Below, one piece after another: positions 13,677 to 28,826 of a stretch of DNA of 29,736 bases. Position numbers and translations under genes: made by a program. Source of the DNA: a virus. The DNA lies in IMG/VR virus record IMGVR_UViG_3300031578_000250, positions 1 to 29,736 of that record; one strand, given 5' to 3'. Under the pieces are notes generated by a model, which did no database searches, was not told the DNA's origin, and was given only the letters and a program-made list of their open reading frames with translations. Position 1 is the stretch's first letter. Each line of letters opens with the position of its first letter.

Positions 13677-14270
13677 CTAATTTAATTTTTCTATTTCTTC
13701 ACTTATCATTTCCAATAACCTATTTGTTGATTTGAAAGAAACGATACCAGCACCCTCTAACAACCCAATTTTATCTTTATTAACAAAGTATAGTGTATAT
13801 TCCACATCATCAGATAGTTGGTCGGTGATTTTTGTGTATTCAGCAATCTTTCCAACATCTCTATTCATGAAGTCATCATAGACCACAATCTCTTTAAGGT
13901 CTTGATTATAATTTTTGATTTTCAGAATCACATCACCTTTACCTTCATTACCTCTTTTCAATAAAACATCATCAACAACAATACTATACATGTCCATAAT
14001 CTTCTCGATTTCTGGACGTAACTTTTCCATTCTCGAAGTTATAATAACGACTGCGGTATCAGGTGTGGCTTTCTCTTTCTCCAACTGAGCCAGTACATGT
14101 GGGAATGGTTTGATATTGAAAACATCGGTGTCAAGACTTTCTTTACGCCCCCACCATCCATCATACGGGTACTTCTCGCCTTTAACCTTTTCCCATTGTT
14201 TCTTACCTTCTTCCTTCTGGGGTGAGTCAATCAATGTCCCATCGAAATCAAATACAGCTAATCTTCTCAT
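13677..14270 (-). CDS. HAD-superfamily phosphatase of the SAK RNA-repair type
   Basis: A 197-residue protein. The HAD motifs are in order: motif I FDFDGTLIDSP (D8 nucleophile, D10 acid), motif II with T78-S79-R80, a lysine-containing segment near K111, and motif IV YDDFMNRD (D132, D133). Residues 36-47 read YDGWWGRKESLD; the GWW element is the mark of the HAD_SAK_1 domain that I recall from 'Swiss army knife' RNA-repair proteins. The likely reaction is phosphate hydrolysis, perhaps removal of 3' or 2' phosphate from RNA ends, but the substrate is inferred. The gene overlaps the nuclease-like gene by 23 nt and lies in the same unit as the 2H/CCA polyprotein, which supports a role in RNA end healing. 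Confidence 0.82.
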   Translation of the reverse strand: MRRLAVFDFDGTLIDSPQKEEGKKQWEKVKGEKYPYDGWWGRKESLDTDVFNIKPFPHVLAQLEKEKATPDTAVVIITSRMEKLRPEIEKIMDMYSIVVDDVLLKRGNEGKGDVILKIKNYNQDLKEIVVYDDFMNRDVGKIAEYTKITDQLSDDVEYTLYFVNKDKIGLLEGAGIVSFKSTNRLLEMISEEIEKLN

Positions 14271-14765: not shown

Positions 14766-17700
14766 TTATTCTTCCTCACTTACCCTACCTGTTAATGTTA
14801 ATGAGAACCCAAGTGGTTTCCAATCAGTTAATTTATTTGAAAGAAACGGTTTACCACCAGCGTTTCGATTCACGGCAATAGTTATATGTGGTTTGGCGTT
14901 TGTTGAAGGATATCCTTCAACACCAACTGCCATAACCAACCCATCGATTGCGTAATCAATCACATTTAATTCAATAGGTTTACCTGATTTCAAATCCCGT
15001 TTCTCCTGACTACCATCAGCAAGACTACCCATCTTAATTGTCATGTGATGCGCAATGATTTCCCAACCTTCCGGTATCATTGGAGTGAAAACCTGAATCA
15101 ATTTTGTGTATGACCCATTATCTAAAACTACTGCGCTATAACTTACTTTCTTCACTGGTTCTTCAGTTAATAAATCTCTATCAGTTAATTCCCAATATAA
15201 TTCCCTTTTTAATTTATCATCAACAGAAAAATCTTCGTAATTGTTCTGAAGAAATTCTAACACAGATTCATGTGATGTATCTGGATATCCCGGTTTTCCA
15301 CCCTGATTATTCCATTTGTTGTATTCCTGAACAAAGAAATCAATAGTTACTTCTTGACCATTCACCTTCCATGTTGAAGGTTGTATGTCACTATAATTAA
15401 GATGCCCTTCTTCCACTTCTTCTGGGTTCTGATTTACCAAAGGTAGTAATTCTTCACGAGTATTCCTAACATCATCATTATATATTTTCATTAACAAACT
15501 TTTCAGCACCTTACCACGCTCCACATCAGGTACATCAGCAGCAATCAAATCATTACCATTGACAGCTAATTCTTTAACTGTTTTAGGGTACTTACCTTGT
15601 AACAATTCCTGTGCAGCAACCTGTAATTTCTCAGGTAATATTTTGCTTTCCAGAACTTTAGTTCCTTTACTTTTCACAACCATGTTATGTGCAGTTGTTC
15701 TATTTACCATAGGCTCATTACTTTCGACAGGCATCCCAATTACCAGACCTTCGAGTTCATTAATGATGTCAATATCTCCCCTGAAATTATTTTTATAAAA
15801 CTCCACAGGTGATACGTTATAATGTGACAGTAAGTAAACAAACTCTGCAAGTGTCTGAACATTATTCCAATCATTACTCACTAACTGTGGTCCGTCAACA
15901 CCCATCGCTCTTAACATGCCAGTATCTTTTAATAAGAAAGCACCCTTTTGAGCATCTCCCTTATTAACAATCTTATCGAATTCAATTTGAATTCGTTCTT
16001 TATCAACAGTCTTTATTTTATCAGCATTGTCTCTAATTAACTTATATGTTGCAGGGTCAATTGTGAAGTTAAATCGACTTGCAAACTGAACAGCCCTCAA
16101 CATTCTCAGAGCATCATCAACAAATGATTTCGGGTGCGTTATTTTAATTTTCCCGGCTTTCAAATCAGCTACACCATTAAATGGGTCAATAACATTACCG
16201 TCCATATCTTTTGCAATTGCATTGATTGTGAAATCTCTGCGTTCCAAATCCTTCTCAATAGGTAATCTATAGTCTGCTGTAATTTCAAAATCATTGTGTC
16301 CTTCGCCAGTTGAAACTTCTGTTCGTGGTAAAGCAATATCGATTTCATCGGTTTCACCGTTCGGTATGAATTTAGTTACGGCAAAACTATTACCAACGGG
16401 TTTAGCTACTCCATATTTTTTTAAAATCTGTGCTAATTTTTCTTCAGGAATACCCCTTATGATAATATCAAGGTCTTTACTATCTTTACCCAGATATTCG
16501 TCACGAACAGCACCACCAACCGCATAAATTTCACCACCAAGTTTTTCAACTTCGTCTCTAAAGGGTAAATCTTGTATTGACATTATTTCTTCATTCATAT
16601 CAGGTACAAGACTACTAAAATATTCTTGGATTACCAAACCTTTTGGTAATCTATACATTAATTGCATGGTTTCGAAATCCTTATTTCTACCCTTATTTAA
16701 AACAAACCCCAGAGATTGATACCATTTTAATAGCTTACCCTTACTTGCACCCCACACATTATCAGGGGTTAGTGTTATAATTTTTTTATTCTTATCGGCA
16801 TATTCAAACAATAATCTCATTGCGTCATTAGCGTATCCAGCACCTCTAAATTCCTTTTCAATAAAAATTTTATCCAGAACCAAATATCTATTACCACGAG
16901 TCATGAGTTCCATTTCACCAACAACCTGACCATCATTCATTATTTTATATGAGGCAAAACCGCCTTGAATATCACCAGCAGGTAAATCAAGAGTTATAGT
17001 TTCATTTACCGAACCAAATTCTAAATTATTAATATCGCCTTGATTACAAGCAACACTAGTATTACCCAAACCAGCAAGCTGACATTTCCTTTTTACCTTT
17101 ACTGTTTTCGAACCGGGCATCCACGCTTTCTTACGTTTCTCCGTTAACATATATTTGTCCTGTGTTGCATTACCTACCACGTGATTATACACAAGGTCTT
17201 CATACATTGCGATATTCGCATCCAAGTCATTATTGATACTTGGTGAGGTGTCATTTGTATTATATACCGGGAAATCGTCTTGATTTACTGCATTATCTGT
17301 GGTGAACTTGGCACTGCCGTCTTCAGGTAGATTAATCATATCTTCATCTGGAATGTCTGGTTCACCAATACCATAATATCCACCAACATCAAAAAACTTC
17401 AATACACCATCTTTATATCCAAGATTTGCAATAGCTATGTAATCTGTTGATTTAATCCCGAAATCCAGTAGTTCTTGACGAATATCGAACATCGTAACAA
17501 TATATTCATATGCTGCTTCCCTATCTATTTTACTAACACCAGCTTCTGGATTATCAGTTAGGACGTGTTTTGCCCATTCGACCCATTCATCATGATTAAA
17601 TCCAGCAGGTTTTTTAATTTCAATCATAATATCTTCATAATCTAAACCACTTGGTACTATCTTATTGATATCGCTCTGTAATTTTCTCAACTTTTCAAGT

Positions 17701-19013
17701 GGTTTATCATTAATATTCTCTTGCATTATCACAAAAATCGATTTGTTCGTATCAGTATCCAGAACTTTATATAAATTAAAAATTGTTGAGATATTTTTTG
17801 GTTGACCTCTCATTAGTTTTGATGCTGCATCAGCTTCACTAATGTCAATAGTGAGTTTCATTACTAAATTATTGTTTATCTCATATGCGAAACCATTACC
17901 TTCACCACCTAAAAATTTAGGGGTACTCAACCCTAATTTACCTACAATTTCTTTTGCTAGTTTATCTCCATAAGTTCTATCACTTAATGTGTCGTATTCA
18001 ACAGGAGGTGTGTCCTCATTGATATGAAAGGTTTCACGGAGTAACGGGTCTCTGTTATAAAAACCTTGTTCGGTAAGATAGGTTTGGAGTTCAAGTAGGT
18101 TACTATAGAATCTTGGTTTGTCTTCAACGACTTTCATTATCTCACTGATGTTGTTCACACATTCATGAAAACGGTCAGTAAGTAATGGGAGATTCTCTAT
18201 TGGTTTATCGGGATATTCTTGTCGGTTTGAAACGAAATTAATAAATTCTTCATTGATTACACCGGGTCCGTCACTTACACTATATGGCATTTGCGCCCAC
18301 ATTCCACGTCTGATATCTCCTTGGTCACCAGTATCACTAAGTATATCATCATTTCCATCGGCATAGTTGAAAAGCTCATACATTTTGTATTGTTGCTTTC
18401 TAATTGGGTCATAATGAGTGTTATAAACTTCGTCATTTAGCCCATAATCTGTTAGAACAATTGTCGGTTGACCATCACGCAGAACCTCACCATAAGTACT
18501 TGGTCTACCCATATCACCAGCATTTTGACCGTAGTTAGCTATGAAGCTCCCTAAGTCTGATGCGAATTCGTTTTCCCAAAAAAACTCTGATTCTTCTTTC
18601 TCTTGATGAAAAATTTCTCTTTTACCTTTGCTTTGTTCTTCGTAATTTCTCAGGAAATAAAATAATGCATTAAGACTCGGTATTCCAGTAAGTTCTTTAA
18701 TTCTTTTTTCATTAACCTTTTTGGCTTTCTCAGAAATTAACCAACTGTCGTCTTCGGCACTATCAAAAACTTCAGTAACAATATGTTGAGTATCACGGTA
18801 ATAACCCGCACCTCCTTCTGCTCCATTCTGTGCAATACCTTTGGCATTCTTTGCTAGTTTCAGAACCTTTTCACCATCGATATCATACACGATTCTACCA
18901 GTACCACTTCCGATTTTATTTAGACGTTCGTTAGCGTATCTGATTTTAGCAGCGAATGATTTCAGGTTTAAGAATTCGGGTAGGAATCCCTCTTTGAATT
19001 CAGCGTATGTCAT
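14766..19013 (-). CDS. Multidomain RNA-repair-like protein: kinase-like x2, GNAT, CCA nucleotidyltransferase, 2H phosphoesterase
   Basis: A 1415-residue protein with at least five modules. (1) Residues about 30-190: kinase-like, IGSGTGRIVYDIDGEKVLKL with K52. (2) About 340-560: a second kinase-like module (GGEGNGFAYEINNNLVMKL, ending GVLKFFDVGGY); both may be pseudokinases. (3) About 660-785: GNAT acetyltransferase with FIEKEFRGAGYANDAMRLL (RGAGYA at 723-728). (4) About 815-1195: class II CCA-adding/poly(A) polymerase with GGAVRD (833-838), DLD (D847, D849), RRDFTINAIA (from 925) and DALRMLRAVQFASRF (from 967). (5) About 1285-1415: 2H phosphoesterase with H-x-T motifs HMT (1323-1325) and HIT (1376-1378). 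Known roles are tRNA 3'-CCA repair and cleavage of 2'-5' or cyclic phosphates. The start is 16 nt downstream of a late-type motif. The fusion of these domains is unusual. Confidence 0.85.
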   Translation of the reverse strand: MTYAEFKEGFLPEFLNLKSFAAKIRYANERLNKIGSGTGRIVYDIDGEKVLKLAKNAKGIAQNGAEGGAGYYRDTQHIVTEVFDSAEDDSWLISEKAKKVNEKRIKELTGIPSLNALFYFLRNYEEQSKGKREIFHQEKEESEFFWENEFASDLGSFIANYGQNAGDMGRPSTYGEVLRDGQPTIVLTDYGLNDEVYNTHYDPIRKQQYKMYELFNYADGNDDILSDTGDQGDIRRGMWAQMPYSVSDGPGVINEEFINFVSNRQEYPDKPIENLPLLTDRFHECVNNISEIMKVVEDKPRFYSNLLELQTYLTEQGFYNRDPLLRETFHINEDTPPVEYDTLSDRTYGDKLAKEIVGKLGLSTPKFLGGEGNGFAYEINNNLVMKLTIDISEADAASKLMRGQPKNISTIFNLYKVLDTDTNKSIFVIMQENINDKPLEKLRKLQSDINKIVPSGLDYEDIMIEIKKPAGFNHDEWVEWAKHVLTDNPEAGVSKIDREAAYEYIVTMFDIRQELLDFGIKSTDYIAIANLGYKDGVLKFFDVGGYYGIGEPDIPDEDMINLPEDGSAKFTTDNAVNQDDFPVYNTNDTSPSINNDLDANIAMYEDLVYNHVVGNATQDKYMLTEKRKKAWMPGSKTVKVKRKCQLAGLGNTSVACNQGDINNLEFGSVNETITLDLPAGDIQGGFASYKIMNDGQVVGEMELMTRGNRYLVLDKIFIEKEFRGAGYANDAMRLLFEYADKNKKIITLTPDNVWGASKGKLLKWYQSLGFVLNKGRNKDFETMQLMYRLPKGLVIQEYFSSLVPDMNEEIMSIQDLPFRDEVEKLGGEIYAVGGAVRDEYLGKDSKDLDIIIRGIPEEKLAQILKKYGVAKPVGNSFAVTKFIPNGETDEIDIALPRTEVSTGEGHNDFEITADYRLPIEKDLERRDFTINAIAKDMDGNVIDPFNGVADLKAGKIKITHPKSFVDDALRMLRAVQFASRFNFTIDPATYKLIRDNADKIKTVDKERIQIEFDKIVNKGDAQKGAFLLKDTGMLRAMGVDGPQLVSNDWNNVQTLAEFVYLLSHYNVSPVEFYKNNFRGDIDIINELEGLVIGMPVESNEPMVNRTTAHNMVVKSKGTKVLESKILPEKLQVAAQELLQGKYPKTVKELAVNGNDLIAADVPDVERGKVLKSLLMKIYNDDVRNTREELLPLVNQNPEEVEEGHLNYSDIQPSTWKVNGQEVTIDFFVQEYNKWNNQGGKPGYPDTSHESVLEFLQNNYEDFSVDDKLKRELYWELTDRDLLTEEPVKKVSYSAVVLDNGSYTKLIQVFTPMIPEGWEIIAHHMTIKMGSLADGSQEKRDLKSGKPIELNVIDYAIDGLVMAVGVEGYPSTNAKPHITIAVNRNAGGKPFLSNKLTDWKPLGFSLTLTGRVSEEE

Positions 19014-19832: not shown

Positions 19833-20765
19833 TTATTTGAAAAAAGTCGTCTTTTTATAAGGAATTGTTGGATTTTCTGTTTCATTTACCCCACTTTGTA
19901 CTTGATTCATTGAGCTTTGCGTCTGACTTAATTTATTCTTAAAGAATGTGTCATCAGCAGGTGCATTACCTTTAACTAGTGAATCATATAATTGTGGTAA
20001 GCTACCAACAATAGCGATATCAGGAATATTTTGTTTATCCTTATCTTTCACCAGCATCAATTGAAAGTCGTTTTTGTCATCAATTACAACCAAATAATTT
20101 CCATGTGCCGTTTTTTGTACTCGACTCGCAACATCCTTTAATTTAACCACGTCATCCGCAGTAATTTTTTTAGCATTTTTATTACCTCTTCGAATACTAT
20201 CCCATTTTGCTTTAAGTTGGTCTGTTCTCGGTATTACCTCTGTTTCGATATCCTTTTTGTACTTATAATCGAAATCCGGTTCATCTTTTGTTGAAACATA
20301 AGCAATAATACTGGTCATGTTGTCATCACCACCCTCATGATACCCCGGAGGTATCATCGGTCCACCTCTACTGTCATTAAATTTCTTACCAATTGGATAT
20401 ACTTGTGATATTTTATCTACATCGAATAGTCTCCAACCCGGTTTTGAACCTTCGTGGTCTGACCAATAATCATGACGTAAACTATCATCACGTGTTGGTT
20501 TGTTATTGAAATGCCAACTATTTTTGGGGTTGTCTTGCCATGCTCTGAGAACCGTGTGATTAGCAGCATTTTTCCCAAGAACATAAGGTCTTATTGTTCT
20601 GGAACCAGTTGCGTTTTCACCATCTTTATTATCAGCGTTATAATAGATATAAAGCCATTCGTGATTATTAATTGCATCGGCAATACTATTCTCACTAACG
20701 CCTTCAGTTAAGAGATGACGAAAGGTTTTAATGTTTTCGAATAATATTTTTGTTTCTGTTGTCAT
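19833..20765 (-). CDS. WYL-like domain protein
   Basis: A 310-residue protein. After a 21-residue leader ending HLLTEG, residues 28-130 read IADAINNHEWLYIYYNADN, then RTIRPYVLG, then TVLRAWQ and GWRLFDVDKISQVYPI. The order of an A-I-x-x-x-x-x-x-I-x-Y strand, an R-x-I-x-P strand and a terminal W-R-L-F-D-V-D-K-I fits the WYL sensor/regulatory domain, which is often linked to phage defence or ligand binding. The rest is hydrophilic, with DNYLVVIDDKN-type strands in residues 200-250. The leader ends at LTE followed by G, which fits a prohead-protease site. A WYL-type fold is an inference from pattern. The gene overlaps the repeat-protein gene by one base. Confidence 0.68.
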   Translation of the reverse strand: MTTETKILFENIKTFRHLLTEGVSENSIADAINNHEWLYIYYNADNKDGENATGSRTIRPYVLGKNAANHTVLRAWQDNPKNSWHFNNKPTRDDSLRHDYWSDHEGSKPGWRLFDVDKISQVYPIGKKFNDSRGGPMIPPGYHEGGDDNMTSIIAYVSTKDEPDFDYKYKKDIETEVIPRTDQLKAKWDSIRRGNKNAKKITADDVVKLKDVASRVQKTAHGNYLVVIDDKNDFQLMLVKDKDKQNIPDIAIVGSLPQLYDSLVKGNAPADDTFFKNKLSQTQSSMNQVQSGVNETENPTIPYKKTTFFK

Positions 20766-21370
20766 TATACTCTACCACTACCTGCACCATATTCATTACC
20801 TTTGGTGTAAAGACCTGCGTTTTTTGCCAGTGAACAAGTTCTACTTGAGAAGTCGATACAAGTACCTGCTTCTTCACCATCAGCTTCTGGTTCTCTACCT
20901 TTATCATCACCATCGGCAATTGTATCTGCGTTTCCAGCACAATATTCGTTACCCGGAGTATATCTATCACTGTTTTTAGCTAATAGACACTCTCTCATAC
21001 CGATATCAATTGTTGTTCCGATGTTCGGATTATGTTGGTTGCCGTCTTCAGGGTCTCTACCTTTATCATCACCATCAGAAATGGTGTCTGCGTGAGCAGG
21101 AAGGTATTCATTGCCGGGAGTGTATAGTGCAGCATTTTTTGCCAGTGAACAATTTCTCATATCAATGTCAATATTTGTTCCAATTGCACCACCATCAGTT
21201 TCAGGGTCTCTACCTTTATTGTCGCCATCAGAAAGTGTTTCCGAAACCGTTGGACAATATTCGTGTCCCGGTGTATATCCACAACTATTCTTAGCCACAG
21301 AACAGGTTCTAAAATCAGCACTATTTTCCAGTAGTCTGCTGCTTTCGTCTATATCATAATTATCTGCCAT
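20765..21370 (-). CDS. Four-repeat Cys/Asp-rich protein
   Basis: A 201-residue protein built from three and a half tandem repeats of about 51-54 residues. Each repeat has R-x-C-S-L-A-K-N, then Y-T-P-G-N-E-Y, then T-I-S-D-G-D-D-K-G-R-D-P-E. The DGDDKG element resembles a Ca-binding loop but lacks the exact dockerin or EF-hand spacing. One cysteine is conserved per repeat and others are sporadic. There is no signal peptide. The start lies 31 nt after a late-type motif, and the last base is shared with the WYL-like gene's start. The protein is likely a virion or surface-display protein; the repeat unit is unfamiliar to me. Sequence similarity between repeats also appears at DNA level, suggesting recent duplication. 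Confidence 0.82.
   Translation of the reverse strand: MADNYDIDESSRLLENSADFRTCSVAKNSCGYTPGHEYCPTVSETLSDGDNKGRDPETDGGAIGTNIDIDMRNCSLAKNAALYTPGNEYLPAHADTISDGDDKGRDPEDGNQHNPNIGTTIDIGMRECLLAKNSDRYTPGNEYCAGNADTIADGDDKGREPEADGEEAGTCIDFSSRTCSLAKNAGLYTKGNEYGAGSGRV
20790..21320 (-). repeat. Tandem coding repeats, about 153-162 bp period
   Basis: The nucleotide strings 'ttgccagtgaac' and 'tctctaccttta', plus 'tcaccatcagaa'-like elements, recur with a period of roughly 150-160 bp. They encode the repeat copies of the protein above. Copy 4 is truncated at the C-terminal end. Confidence 0.75.
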
Positions 21371-21410: not shown

Positions 21411-22193
21411 TTAATCGTATTTTTTAAACACGAGAGTAATATATTCGATTAAATGTGGAACAGTATCAAGATATTCCATTTCACTCACGTCATACCAACC
21501 ATATTTAACATTTTCTTTCATGTCGAGTTCAACATCAGTCGGGTCACCCTCATATCGAGAAGCGAATATCGTTTCTTCACTGTCTTCATGTCTTTGAATT
21601 GTGAAAGATTCAACAAACTCATTAATTTCCAAACCAGTTTCTTCCTTAATTTCTCTTTCACACGCTTCTTCAGCACTCTCACCTTTCCCAATACCACCCC
21701 CAACAAGTGCCCATTTATCTGGCATCCATTGGTCTGGAAAATCTGAACGTTTTAGCAATAGAATCTTATTATCATCATTAACAATAACAGCTACAGCATT
21801 CTTTTTTAATTCCTCCTTTTTCTTAGCTTCGTTAAGTTGTGGGGTCTGATGTGGCATCAATTCCGAATTGGGATTAGCCGTTACATCACGCCTTGCTTCT
21901 TTCGACCTCTGAACACCCGCTCTATCCTGATTCAGTGTGGCTTCAATGAATGCTTTCATTGGTTGACCACCAGCAAGATTAAATTGTGTCACATCTCCTG
22001 TCTGTGGATTGAAGTAATCGAAGAAGTTTTTCAATCTCTTCATTGCTTGATAGGTCAGATTAGGCTCGTGAAGGATGTTTTTAGCTCGTTTAACACCCTC
22101 TGCGTTCGGATTGGATACCAAGGATGTCTGGATACCTTTAAGCACGTCTGGGGGAATCCTATAAGTTTTATCGTATAGTTCCTGATTAGCCAT
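21411..22193 (-). CDS. Nudix hydrolase with 120-residue N-terminal extension
   Basis: A 260-residue protein. Residues 166-188 match the Nudix box G-x5-E-x7-REUxEExGU exactly (GGIGKGESAEEACEREIKEE, then TGL), with G166, E172, R180, E181, E184 and E185. The enzyme would hydrolyse a nucleoside diphosphate linked to another group, such as an oxidised NTP, dinucleoside polyphosphate, ADP-ribose or an NAD-type RNA cap. The N-terminal 120 residues are a separate helical domain (YRIPPDVLKGIQTSLVSNPN...) that I do not recognise. The junction reads PQLNEAKKKEE: LNE followed by A at 122/123 matches the T4 prohead-protease consensus, directly before the Nudix fold. The start overlaps the upstream gene by 8 nt. 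Confidence 0.9.
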   Translation of the reverse strand: MANQELYDKTYRIPPDVLKGIQTSLVSNPNAEGVKRAKNILHEPNLTYQAMKRLKNFFDYFNPQTGDVTQFNLAGGQPMKAFIEATLNQDRAGVQRSKEARRDVTANPNSELMPHQTPQLNEAKKKEELKKNAVAVIVNDDNKILLLKRSDFPDQWMPDKWALVGGGIGKGESAEEACEREIKEETGLEINEFVESFTIQRHEDSEETIFASRYEGDPTDVELDMKENVKYGWYDVSEMEYLDTVPHLIEYITLVFKKYD

Positions 22194-22887: not shown

Positions 22888-25800
22888 TTAATCAGGACCA
22901 TCACCATCATCAAAATATTCACTTGCAGCTTCTTCAACAGCGATTTCTTCTTCCATAATATAATCATCAAAAGCAACATCTGAATTCTCAGCCACTTTAA
23001 ATAGTTCATCCATTGTAGTTTTTATGGGAATACCATGCTTTTCCTTAAATGCATTGAAGTACTTCTCTCTTCTCTTGAGTTGTGCTTCAAAGAAAATTTC
23101 CTTATCACTTTTATTTTTACTAGATAATTCGCTGGCTTCCAGTCCCTCAATTACCTTCTGTTTTTCTTCAGCAATTCTATCGAGTTCAAGTTCTATTTCA
23201 CCTTTTGGAATTTCAACATTGGTTCTAACAATCTGGATATATACACCATTGAACGCACCAACATGATAATTACTATTATCCTTAATTAAAACCAAATCAC
23301 CTTCTCCATAATCCTCGTTTATAGATTTAAGATGAGGTTTATTGAGTTCGGTCATTTTCTCATTGAGGTAATTCAAGGCATTCTCATATATTTCATAATG
23401 AACAGGGTAATCAGCACGTGCTTTAAATCCGTCCCAAACCAATCTGGGGTCATATCCGGTTTTATTCCAATAATCAATTTCAGCGTCTTCCAAATGCATG
23501 GCTTCATCGAAATCATCAAGGTCGTAGTTCTTCAAAACCAATTGGTCGCTCGTGAACATTTCCTTTTTCAACTCACCCTTCTTTTCACCCTTTTTAATTG
23601 TGTTTACCAGTATTTTTTTCGCAATAGCTGGGTCGAAACCAACAAGTATTGATTTAACTTTACTATTGAACGCAGCAAGATATTTTTCGTAATTATATGT
23701 ACCTGTCATTTCAGGATTTTCTTGTAGGTCTTCGTTACTAATTAACGCAGATGCCATTCTCATTTCTCCGGTTTCCTTGTCTTTGATTTCCTTTGATTCA
23801 CCGTGAGACTTAACATAACCAGTATTGACATAATACACGACATCATCCAATTCAGGTTCCGGTGGCATATAGTTAATAATTAACTTCATTTTAGTATCGG
23901 GAGTCAATTGGTCTTCTTTCTCCTTATCACACTCTATCTTGTCCTTATGTACTTCGAAGAGTTCGATAGCTTGTTCTTCACGTTTTTTAATTAAGAGTTC
24001 CATGTGAGCTTGCATGGCTTTTGGTCTACCGTTCTTATCGGTTCCCCGGTTTTTATAACCTTTAATTTTTAATTTAACCCTACTTTTACTTGCAATCTTT
24101 TTCAACGGAATTTGCATGTATCGAATATCTTCGGCATAATCGTAATAATAATCAACAAACTCCTTCCCTTTACCATGAAGAAGAAGGTCGAAACCCTTAT
24201 CAATGAATTCCTCAATATATTCTGGCATTGCTTTAGACTTGATTGTGTTACCAGTGAGTTTGATTTTCTCCTTCATTTCACCAGTTTTCTTATCCTTAAC
24301 CAATGAAAGCGTTGCGTAGTTAATTCTCGCAAGGTTCAGACATGATTCACTCTTACCATCATCATCAACACTCATATATGGCTTCGGCATTTCGGTCTCA
24401 TTGAACAACTCAATTAGCGCACCTATACCCCTTTTACCCCTATATTGCCACATGTCATCAACTAATCCCTCAGTTGTTCCCTCACTTATTCCCTCATCAC
24501 TAACTTTAATTGTGGTGTAATCCGGTATTTGGAAGTTCACACCATCAGTTACAGCAAGTAATGCGGTACAACCGAATTGACTGAACCAATAAATTGCATG
24601 TCTCAACTGAATGCGTGCTACACAGGTAATTCTGCCAGCACATATATTATCCGACCAGTTGAAACTAATGTGTGAACCCAACGCACCATAAAGAGAGTTA
24701 TTCAAAATCTTAATAGGTAACTGCTTAATCTTAAACATCGCAGTATCTTCCGGTGTCAGGGCATCATTAATGTATTTCTCATACACCTTTGGGTCAAGTT
24801 GTTGTAAGAGTTCAACCTCTTCTTTATCAAGTTTATCCCCACTACCCATTTTCTTATAGATGTTACGGGTTGTTGTCATATACAACAACATTTTTCTCAT
24901 AACACCAGTGATGTCAAACATCGGGAATACGTCATCCGTTAACTGAATCATTGGGTATAGTGATGCGTAGTCAATTTTAATAAGTTTTTCAGTATAACCA
25001 ATTTTGAACGTTCTCGCCAGACCTCCACTAAACCCCAAATACTTATCGGGAATCGGAATAGCTAAATTATTTTCGTAGCTCCAAGCAGTAAGAAGTAAGT
25101 TCCAAACTGCTGCCGTACCCATTGTACAAATTCTCTGATATGTGGTTGGGACTATCTTGGCAACCATAAATGATGATTGGTTGTAAAGTTCATCAACCTG
25201 CGAAGTTTCGTAAAGGTCATCGAGCAGATATTGTTTTACAAGTTTTCTACCACCGATAAACGTTGTAAGGCTTTTCTCCAAACAATTTTTTCTAAACCAA
25301 GTAGGAAACTCCTTATTCTCATCGAGATATCTCTTTCTAAACGCTTTATGTTGTTCCGGTGTTAATTTTTTATTATTGGCTTGAAGTTTATATAATTTTT
25401 TTGCGATATCTTGAAACTCGTCAGGTACTTGGAGATATTCGTTCTTTTCATTAACCATGAAAACCTTATTCTCATTATAGAATCTACCAATATCATTATC
25501 TTCACCCTTGATGTATGTTCGATTTTTTCTGGCGAAGTTCTCAAATTTCGCAACATATTTCAGATTGGTTTTCTTTATGTCGGAGTTTACTGCTTGAGTT
25601 CGTTTCGCTGCATGGAGTGTATCGATAATTGAGTAACCCCACATTTTTGTAGCAGTATATTTATCACTGGTATTACCATACTTAACATTAGTACCACCTT
25701 TTCTTGAAATGTGTACACCTTCTTTAAGACCAGTAGGAACCTGAGTTAAATCCATCTTGAGCATCTTGGCTCTACCCAGAATAAATTCCATGTCAAAATC

Positions 25801-26589
25801 TTCCCAATTGTGTCCTAGAATAACGGCAGGTCTAATGTGGTCAATTAAATTGAAGAAGTCCTGAATTAGTTTGATTTCCGATTCGTCATCATCACGTTTT
25901 TCAACTTCCAAAATTGTTTCGAATTCCCGGTTATCCCTAACTCCAATCGCAAACATTCTATGTATTTGATATCTAAGTCCTTCGGTCTCGATGTCAGCAG
26001 TTAAGCGATGAACTTCCCTATATTGTTCGTACCCTTTGTAAAGTCTTGATTGGGTGCTGATGAGAAACTGTTCATTGGTATGAACGGAATTGAAGAAATC
26101 ACGATTCTTATAGACGATTTTATCTTTTTCATCTCTGACAATTTTGCCGTTATCGTCATAAAGTTTTTCGAATAGGTCAAATCCACCGTCTCGGAAATAT
26201 TGAGTGATATCATTACTTGACCTGTGACTCGTTACCTTATAGCAATAACCATCAAGCAATCTTTTTTGATTACCAGTTTTTAGTTTGGTTATTTTAATAC
26301 CATATTTTATTTGCTTACTTTCAATATACGATTCATCTTTACCGGGATATAGGATTATTCCGTGTCTCGCTAAATCTTTCATATACGTAAAAGGTAAGTA
26401 TCTTATCTTTTCAATTTTTGGTTTCAGACCGGGTTCATGAATCACACATTCCGCAATATCCGTCCCATAATCGGTTTCCACATTAACCAGATACTTAATA
26501 TCGTTGTTATATCCCTCAAGAAATCCCTTGATTTCACCCAACACCTCATGTTTATTCATCTGTTTTTTATCCTTCTTGGGTTCCGTCAT
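22888..26589 (-). CDS. Family B DNA polymerase
   Basis: A 1233-residue replicative polymerase. Exonuclease motifs: exo I ADIETEG (about residue 197), exo II ILGHNWEDFDMEF (near 255) and exo III YLLDDL. Polymerase motifs: A KIDYASLYPMIQL (D and SLYP near 536), B ILNNSLYGALGS (near 629) and C AVTDGVNF (near 679). In motif C the usual YxDTDS is changed: the second, catalytic Asp is kept as TDG (D682), but the first Asp is replaced by Val. The C-terminus has a large insertion/thumb region and an acidic tail (EEAASEYFDDGDGPD). The length exceeds T4 gp43 (898) by about 330. It overlaps the helicase gene by 23 nt, so the two are co-transcribed from the host-type promoter. Confidence 0.93.
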   Translation of the reverse strand: MTEPKKDKKQMNKHEVLGEIKGFLEGYNNDIKYLVNVETDYGTDIAECVIHEPGLKPKIEKIRYLPFTYMKDLARHGIILYPGKDESYIESKQIKYGIKITKLKTGNQKRLLDGYCYKVTSHRSSNDITQYFRDGGFDLFEKLYDDNGKIVRDEKDKIVYKNRDFFNSVHTNEQFLISTQSRLYKGYEQYREVHRLTADIETEGLRYQIHRMFAIGVRDNREFETILEVEKRDDDESEIKLIQDFFNLIDHIRPAVILGHNWEDFDMEFILGRAKMLKMDLTQVPTGLKEGVHISRKGGTNVKYGNTSDKYTATKMWGYSIIDTLHAAKRTQAVNSDIKKTNLKYVAKFENFARKNRTYIKGEDNDIGRFYNENKVFMVNEKNEYLQVPDEFQDIAKKLYKLQANNKKLTPEQHKAFRKRYLDENKEFPTWFRKNCLEKSLTTFIGGRKLVKQYLLDDLYETSQVDELYNQSSFMVAKIVPTTYQRICTMGTAAVWNLLLTAWSYENNLAIPIPDKYLGFSGGLARTFKIGYTEKLIKIDYASLYPMIQLTDDVFPMFDITGVMRKMLLYMTTTRNIYKKMGSGDKLDKEEVELLQQLDPKVYEKYINDALTPEDTAMFKIKQLPIKILNNSLYGALGSHISFNWSDNICAGRITCVARIQLRHAIYWFSQFGCTALLAVTDGVNFQIPDYTTIKVSDEGISEGTTEGLVDDMWQYRGKRGIGALIELFNETEMPKPYMSVDDDGKSESCLNLARINYATLSLVKDKKTGEMKEKIKLTGNTIKSKAMPEYIEEFIDKGFDLLLHGKGKEFVDYYYDYAEDIRYMQIPLKKIASKSRVKLKIKGYKNRGTDKNGRPKAMQAHMELLIKKREEQAIELFEVHKDKIECDKEKEDQLTPDTKMKLIINYMPPEPELDDVVYYVNTGYVKSHGESKEIKDKETGEMRMASALISNEDLQENPEMTGTYNYEKYLAAFNSKVKSILVGFDPAIAKKILVNTIKKGEKKGELKKEMFTSDQLVLKNYDLDDFDEAMHLEDAEIDYWNKTGYDPRLVWDGFKARADYPVHYEIYENALNYLNEKMTELNKPHLKSINEDYGEGDLVLIKDNSNYHVGAFNGVYIQIVRTNVEIPKGEIELELDRIAEEKQKVIEGLEASELSSKNKSDKEIFFEAQLKRREKYFNAFKEKHGIPIKTTMDELFKVAENSDVAFDDYIMEEEIAVEEAASEYFDDGDGPD

Positions 26590-28448: not shown

Positions 28449-28826
28449 TTAGGTTGGTCGAACAACATATATTGTAAACTCGTCCGTTACGTCTTGTGAA
28501 TTATCACCCGGTGTTGGGAAATATGTGGTATCTGTCGTCTCGACATAAACGGTGTCTTCGTTGGTCAGGTCTTGAGTATTATCACTTAATGCCGGGAAAT
28601 ATGTAGTATTAATCGGAGCTACATACCATGTAGTTAAATCCGTTAGGTCTTGTGCCCCATTACTTAGTATTGGGAAATATGTAGTGCCACTTGCCAATAC
28701 ATAAATCGCCCACTCATCTGTTAGGTCTTGTGTGTTATTACTCGGTACTGGAAAATATGTAGTATTGGTCGGAGTAACGTACCAAATAAAGTCATTTGTT
28801 ATGTCTTGAGGATTTGCGTTACTCAT
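28449..28826 (-). CDS. Small protein of tandem 26-residue repeats
   Basis: A 125-residue protein made of 4.6 repeats of 26 residues, each (N/G)xQD(L/I/V)T(D/N), then a x-x-x-YV strand, then TTYFP and a S/N/D turn. The regular QD-T/YV/TTYFP pattern suggests a beta-strand repeat, as in small fibre, decoration or adhesin-like virion proteins. There are no cysteines, signal peptide or membrane segment. It is the last gene of the holin-containing unit; no terminator is visible, and the host-type promoter of the helicase lies immediately downstream. No family recognised. A virion-associated role is inferred. Confidence 0.78.
   Translation of the reverse strand: MSNANPQDITNDFIWYVTPTNTTYFPVPSNNTQDLTDEWAIYVLASGTTYFPILSNGAQDLTDLTTWYVAPINTTYFPALSDNTQDLTNEDTVYVETTDTTYFPTPGDNSQDVTDEFTIYVVRPT
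28453..28815 (-). repeat. Tandem 78-bp coding repeats
   Basis: The string 'gggaaatatgt' and the neighbouring 'gtcaggtcttg'/'gttaggtcttg' recur with a 78-bp period, about 4.6 copies, exactly matching the 26-residue protein repeats. Copies differ mostly at third positions and in turn residues. Confidence 0.8.

What the first reader, a model, noticed from the sequence alone, without database searches (positions are those of the whole stretch)
14766..19013. Five-module fusion of kinase-like, GNAT, CCA-adding and 2H phosphoesterase domains in one phage protein
Seen: two kinase-like glycine-loop modules, a GNAT motif (RGAGYA at 723-728), a full CCA/poly(A)-polymerase signature (GGAVRD, DLD, RRDFTINAIA, DALRMLRAVQ) and two H-x-T motifs at 1323-1325 and 1376-1378. 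Known: CCA enzymes rebuild tRNA 3' ends, and 2H enzymes open cyclic or 2'-5' phosphates. A single chain joining these looks like an all-in-one tRNA/RNA end-repair or anti-defence protein. I know of no described protein with this order.
Basis: partly seen in the sequence, partly recalled or inferred. Interest (0 to 1): 0.85.

Follow-up and report, generated by a model that had tools for sequence, protein, structure and literature searches.

The report
Cleavable polyprotein of phage effector modules
A large phage protein joining kinase-like, acetyltransferase, tRNA-CCA-adding and RNA-end-processing modules looks less like one multitool enzyme than like a string of separate enzymes with T4-type head-protease cutting sites at the joints, probably packed in the virus head, cut apart there and injected into the host.

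Summary
The 'all-in-one repair enzyme' reading is not supported. In 24 non-redundant relatives from a T4-like jumbo-phage lineage the N-terminal kinase-like array and a 42-aa Cys motif are constant, while cargo modules are swapped, repeated, or encoded as separate genes (CCA fused/split: at least 7 changes on the tree). All 106 module junctions carry [LIVM]xE; 92 match a stricter motif, against 45 (max 57) in same-length windows inside modules. L/I-x-E is the published cutting site of T4 prohead protease gp21. Large relatives encode a gp21 orthologue with T4's H85 and S140 conserved; their capsid protein aligns INE with T4 gp23's cleavage Glu65. Best reading: a polyvalent-type effector polyprotein, targeted to the prohead and cut at its joints. 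Cleavage, packaging and injection are inferred, not shown; some relatives lack the leader site, and split CCA/2H genes have no leader. New variant of a known kind.

The parts
14766..19013 (-). whole ORF, 1415-aa polyprotein
   Evidence: intact relatives of 1097-2688 aa
18975..19013 (-). leader MTYAEFKEGFLPE (residues 1-13), capsid-targeting-like, possible cut after LPE13
   Evidence: sequence; resembles the MKTYQEFIAE leader found by pattern in T4-like contigs; an LxE triad at this place is present in most but not all relatives
18042..18959 (-). K1, kinase-like module 1 (residues 19-324)
   Evidence: K52, E66, D167, D189, G191 invariant in 22 rows; profile link to K2; stand-alone relatives in XacN1 and Slicko01
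18015..18023 (-). INE333|D joint between K1 and K2
   Evidence: [LIVM]xE at this joint in 21 of 22 rows within 3 columns while flanks vary; linker pLDDT below 50 at 321-332
17334..17981 (-). K2, kinase-like module 2 (residues 345-560)
   Evidence: Foldseek prob 1.00 on APH(2''), VIA Z 11.2 on PKR
17139..17147 (-). LTE625|K joint before the Cys motif
17001..17126 (-). CQ motif (residues 630-671), KKCRLGGLGNTSVACNQGDINNL type, function unknown; ends in VNE671
   Evidence: present in every polyprotein long enough to reach it; no match in annotated phages
16638..16994 (-). GNAT module (residues 674-792)
16590..16598 (-). MNE808|E joint before CCA
   Evidence: stand-alone CCA genes start at about this position
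15435..16586 (-). class II tRNA nucleotidyltransferase (CCA) module (residues 810-1193)
15378..15434 (-). linker 1194-1212 with VEE1202|G
15162..15377 (-). MID helical module (residues 1213-1284) ending in LLTE1284|E
   Evidence: block pLDDT 59 at the joint
14775..15155 (-). 2H phosphoesterase module (residues 1287-1413)
20703..20765 (-). leader FRHLLTE|G of the 310-aa neighbour (19833-20765)
   Evidence: LLTE or INE followed by G/A/S at the same place in relatives
21828..21836 (-). LNE122|A site between the N-terminal part and the Nudix domain of the 260-aa neighbour (21411-22193)
   Evidence: Nudix domain begins at residue 132; LNE|E in a relative
13677..14270 (-). downstream HAD phosphatase-like gene
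   Evidence: weak match to HAD_SAK_1 of RNA-repair proteins, 19.5 bits against a cut-off of 25.6

Best explanation
The gene makes a polyvalent-type effector polyprotein of a T4-like jumbo phage, probably of Bacteroidota. SHOWN from sequence or models: constant N-terminal kinase-like modules and Cys motif, exchangeable cargo (GNAT, CCA-adding enzyme, 2H; in relatives also ART and others), [LIVM]xE triads at every joint, and a gp21-type prohead protease in the lineage. INFERRED: in most members the N-terminal leader carries the chain into the prohead core. The prohead protease then cuts after LxE in the flexible linkers. The freed enzymes are ejected with the DNA, where the kinase-like modules and GNAT would modify host proteins, the CCA enzyme would keep or rebuild tRNA 3' ends, and 2H would clear cyclic phosphate RNA ends or nucleotide signals.
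For: LxE at 106 of 106 junctions; stricter motif 92 of 106 against 45 (max 57) in length-matched windows. [LI]xE 42.3 per 1000 aa in short linkers, against 15.1 in modules and 17.7 in shuffles, while [LI]xD and [LI]xK lie below shuffles. The K1/K2 joint site is kept in nearly all rows with varying flanks and lies in a low-confidence linker. gp21 orthologues in 7 of 8 large relatives, 31-32% identical to T4 gp21, with H85 and S140 invariant. Lineage gp23 aligns MINE|SSD with T4 gp23 Glu65. gp21 cuts after L/I-x-E and T4 packages Alt and IPs by such leaders (PMC9026906). Neighbours carry LLTE|G and LNE|A sites. K1 relatives in cultured phages have leaders FLSE|AP and LLE|AP, and XacN1 has gp21. 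Split CCA and 2H genes begin near the predicted cut. ART-PolyVal occurs in relatives.
Against: No virion proteomics. The leader LxE is missing in L004, L031, L037, L042, L043, L048 and L050. Split CCA and 2H genes have no leader, so packaging of these modules is not obligatory. LxE triads also occur inside folded modules. Junctions of relatives are not independent. The window and several contigs are fragments without the protease gene. Genome-wide enrichment of N-terminal LxE leaders is modest (39 of 275 proteins against 26 of 275 in the control stretch).
Confidence: 0.66

Rival explanations
1. Multifunctional fusion made and used inside the infected cell, never packaged. The CCA module matures the phage's own tRNAs and 2H trims RNA ends; the LxE triads are relics of linkers.
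For: One relative (G010) has about 45 tRNA genes, nearly all without an encoded CCA. Split CCA and 2H genes lack leaders.
Against: Residue-specific LxE enrichment at joints with depletion of LxD and LxK; leaders on neighbours and on stand-alone K1 relatives; CCA is kept in G012, where only 2 tRNA genes were found.
Confidence: 0.2
2. Single-chain RNA end-repair or anti-defence enzyme whose modules act together.
For: CCA and 2H occur in the same order in the loci, fused or adjacent; a HAD phosphatase-like gene lies downstream; Cas12a3 defence cuts tRNA CCA tails (PMC12851939).
Against: Repeated fission at the joints (at least 7 changes for CCA, 5 for 2H), exchange of unrelated cargo between the kinase array and CCA, protease-type sites at joints.
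Confidence: 0.08
3. Packaged and injected as one uncut polyvalent protein, processed only in the host or not at all.
For: N4 virion RNA polymerase is packaged unprocessed (described in PMC5512222).
Against: The lineage has an LxE-type head protease and the chain offers its motif at every joint.
Confidence: 0.06

Closest known systems
Polyvalent proteins (Iyer et al. 2017, PMC5512222)
   Same: Many unrelated enzyme domains in one phage chain; kinase, GNAT, 2H and (in relatives) ART-PolyVal domains; thought to be injected with DNA.
   Different: No fused zincin or assemblin peptidase found by Pfam in the window protein; joints carry sites for a separate T4-type head protease; contains a full CCA-adding enzyme, whereas that paper describes only minimal Pol-beta NTases; kinase-like modules match no Pfam kinase model.
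T4 internal/ejection proteins (IPI-III, Alt) with capsid-targeting leader and gp21 cleavage
   Same: N-terminal leader in most members, gp21 orthologue, L/I-x-E sites, enzymatic cargo such as ADP-ribosyltransferase.
   Different: T4 proteins are single effectors with a removed propeptide; here many modules share one chain with sites between them.
SPN3US/phiKZ head propeptides (PMC7411985, PMC10052503)
   Same: Head protease makes several cuts in one precursor.
   Different: The multiple cuts remove propeptides; they do not release separate enzymes.
Class II CCA-adding enzymes and 2H phosphoesterases (CNPase, LigT, Acb1)
   Same: Motifs and folds match.
   Different: Embedded in a polyprotein; activity and substrate unknown.

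Membership tests
Polyvalent proteins | several disparate enzyme domains in one chain | tested here: met
Polyvalent proteins | shares polyvalent-specific domain families | tested here: met
   ART-PolyVal above cut-off in relatives L036 and L048; not in the window protein itself
Polyvalent proteins | kinase modules recognised by a Pfam kinase model (one feature of the described polyvalent kinases, not of the class as a whole) | tested here: not met
   no kinase family at E<=1 in any of 22 rows; kinase fold by structure only
Polyvalent proteins | injected with DNA | not testable with these tools
   needs virion proteomics
T4-type internal head protein processed by gp21 | gp21-type S77 protease in the phage | tested here: met
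   7 of 8 large relatives, H85 and S140 conserved; the window is a fragment without it
T4-type internal head protein processed by gp21 | N-terminal leader ending in L/I-x-E | tested here: inconclusive
   LPE13 in the window protein; absent in 7 of 23 polyproteins with an N-terminus
T4-type internal head protein processed by gp21 | actual cleavage after Glu and presence in the virion | not testable with these tools
   no proteomics available
Class II CCA-adding enzyme | head domain with GGxxRD, DxD, RRD and [ED]DxxR motifs | tested here: met
   first two in 28 of 28, last two in 27 of 28 modules, the exception cut by a contig end
Class II CCA-adding enzyme | CCA rather than CC-, A- or poly(A)-adding activity | not testable with these tools
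   needs assay
2H phosphoesterase | bilobal 2H fold with two H-x-T motifs | tested here: met
   VIA Z 12.8 to CNPase; 21 of 21 modules checked, though L002's second motif reads HII
GNAT acetyltransferase | acetyl-CoA motif and profile match | tested here: met
   RGAGYA; E 1e-5 in the window protein, just under the cut-off, above cut-off in relatives
Protein/aminoglycoside kinase-like fold | N-lobe, Lys, Glu and DFG-like Asp | tested here: met
   K1 invariants and K2 fold
Protein/aminoglycoside kinase-like fold | canonical HRDxxxxN catalytic loop in K2 | tested here: not met
   the Asp lies one residue further from the invariant Asn and is Glu in one row; activity is uncertain

The most novel reading that the evidence does not exclude
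A viral-style effector polyprotein in a phage: one precursor enters the prohead by its leader, the head protease cuts it at INE/LNE/LTE joints into a set of injected enzymes, and relatives reprogram the set by swapping modules between the fixed joints.
Probability: 0.5. Interest if true: 0.82.

Novelty: new variant of a known kind. Interest (0 to 1): 0.63.

Why it matters
If true, it explains how large phages could deliver many enzymes at once in fixed ratio through one leader, gives polyvalent proteins a concrete maturation route, and makes cargo of unknown function findable by reading between LxE joints. It also gives a CCA-adding enzyme a possible early role when host defences attack tRNA 3' ends.

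Tried and rejected
Artefact of assembly or gene calling: rejected, since intact relatives with the same start and order exist in many independent contigs. PADLOC: no match. CQ motif in annotated phages: no match. PF03420 in the small contigs: no match, uninformative because they are fragments. Genome-wide N-terminal LxE leader count: only a modest excess, not used as main support. LxE counted over whole proteins: scaffold and other probable head proteins rank highest and polyproteins sit at about twice the genome median (4.1 against 1.8 per 1000 aa), so the signal lies in linkers, not in bulk. Fold of K1 was not tested alone, because the model search was filled by K2. Papers on a phage effector polyprotein cut by a separate prohead protease: none found.

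Full report
OBSERVATION. The ORF is 1415 aa, ATG-started, on the minus strand at 14766-19013. Pfam and PHROGs find the CCA/poly(A) polymerase head and RNA-binding domains, a GNAT, and a weak C-terminal 2H. Solved CCA enzymes match residues 823-1054 (E 8e-30). An AlphaFold2 model of 1210-1413 (pLDDT 87.5) gives VIA Z 12.8 (rmsd 2.5, 122 residues) to CNPase, 7.3 to Acb1 and 6.6 to LigT, so the 2H call is right. A model of 1-564 shows a kinase fold for 345-549 (matches stop near the DFG-like Asp). K1 is linked to K2 by profile and keeps K52, E66, D167 and D189 in all 22 rows. CCA motifs are intact in every complete module and two H-x-T motifs are in all 21 2H modules checked.

RELATIVES. A scan with the whole protein gave six relatives and the K1 alignment gave 32 loci, on contigs up to 349 kb. 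Among 24 non-redundant polyproteins (755-2688 aa, some cut by contig ends), K1, one or two further kinase-like copies (none in L003) and the 42-aa CQ Cys motif are constant. What follows varies: GNAT in six, and in others ART-PolyVal, repeated modules of unknown kind, a HEFVH zincin-like stretch (L027), a second 2H (2Hb, matching 2_5_RNA_ligase2 and weakly Acb1), MID and the C-terminal 2H. CCA and 2H are present in the loci that extend far enough, but in nine of 25 scored loci CCA is a separate ORF and in nine of 23 the 2H is. On a K1 tree the fused/split state of CCA needs at least 7 changes, of 2H at least 5, and GNAT presence at least 5 (only 8 of 23 inner branches are strongly supported). 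So the modules do not need to share a chain.

JOINTS. Every one of 106 junctions between recognised modules holds [LIVM]xE. A stricter form, [LIM][NTSDAK]E, is in 92, against a mean of 45 and a maximum of 57 in 200 draws of equal-length windows inside modules. In short linkers [LI]xE reaches 42.3 per 1000 aa, against 17.7 in shuffles of the same linkers and 15.1 in modules, whereas [LI]xD (6.0) and [LI]xK (6.4) fall below their shuffles. Relatedness makes the junctions non-independent, but the flanks differ while the triad stays, for example INE, IRE, IKE, LDE and IDE at the K1/K2 joint. That joint lies in a stretch with pLDDT below 50, and the LLTE joint before 2H in a block of 59. Stand-alone CCA ('M.SIQDF') and 2H ('M..SYSAVV') genes begin close to where the cut would make an N-terminus in the fused forms.

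PROTEASE. T4 gp21 cuts after L/I-x-E, and T4 internal proteins and Alt are taken into the core by short leaders (PMC9026906). Seven of eight large relatives have a gp21-type S77 protease over the family cut-off. Two of them, aligned to T4 gp21, share 31-32% identity and keep H85 and S140, which from my own knowledge are catalytic residues. The gene sits beside terminase, portal, a scaffold-like protein and a gp23-like capsid protein. The capsid protein's nearest annotated relatives are Flavobacterium phage immuto, huge uncultured phages and RM378, and it aligns MINE|SSD with T4 gp23 Glu65, the known cleavage residue. The window's polyprotein begins MTYAEFKEGFLPE, recalling MKTYQEFIAE, a leader remembered from T4 and found here by pattern in T4-like contigs. 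Stand-alone K1 relatives in XacN1 and Slicko01 begin MKQVRLSQFLSE|AP and MKIYNLYSTLLE|AP, and XacN1 has S77. Next to the polyprotein, a 310-aa protein has LLTE|G after 21 residues and a Nudix protein has LNE|A just before its domain.

MECHANISM. Shown by sequence and models: modular architecture, joint motif, protease orthologue in the lineage, folds. Inferred: packaging through the leader, cutting by gp21, ejection, and the action of each product. For CCA, two roles are open: maturing phage tRNAs (one relative has about 45 tRNA genes nearly all without encoded CCA) or repairing tRNA tails cut by defences such as Cas12a3 (PMC12851939).

LIMITS. Seven of 23 polyproteins lack the leader triad, split CCA and 2H genes have no leader, and the window itself is a fragment without head genes. 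A related contig was binned in a Bacteroidota genome, a weak hint of the host.

COMPARISON. It works like a polyvalent protein (PMC5512222) and like T4's ejected head proteins at once. Polyvalent proteins were proposed to be processed by fused zincin or assemblin-like peptidases; a separate T4-type head protease acting at every joint is, as far as the searched library shows, not described. Multiple cuts in one head precursor are known for SPN3US propeptides (PMC10052503). Hence: new variant of a known kind.

Noticed in passing
L058:1393-3018 (-); G007, G009 and G011: The prohead protease gene carries an in-frame intein-like insert directly behind the ADHP motif of the catalytic His (DHPD-[insert]-SSIISLQ in the uninterrupted forms).
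   Followed up: partly
L081, L082 (G010): About 45 tRNA genes and a tmRNA in an array; nearly all lack an encoded CCA.
   Followed up: partly
window 17001-17126 (-): 42-aa motif KKCRLGGLGNTSVACNQGDINNL, conserved in all the polyproteins that reach it, with no known relative.
   Followed up: partly
L001:10535-11470, L001:13301-13951, L002:10527-11135: Homing-endonuclease-like ORFs sit at the points where the polyprotein gene is broken up.
   Followed up: no
window 20765-21370 (-): 201-aa protein made of repeats LAKN..YTPGNEY....ISDGDDKGRDPE.
   Followed up: no
window 28449-28826 (-): 125-aa protein of repeats TTYFP..S.N.QDLT.
   Followed up: no
window 22888-26589 (-): Divergent 1233-aa DNA polymerase; its best annotated relatives are Salinibacter phages at about 23% identity.
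   Followed up: no
G010:182861-183244 (-): Stand-alone ART-like gene with leader ..ELLNE|TTYEVYHGT, related to a cargo module.
   Followed up: partly
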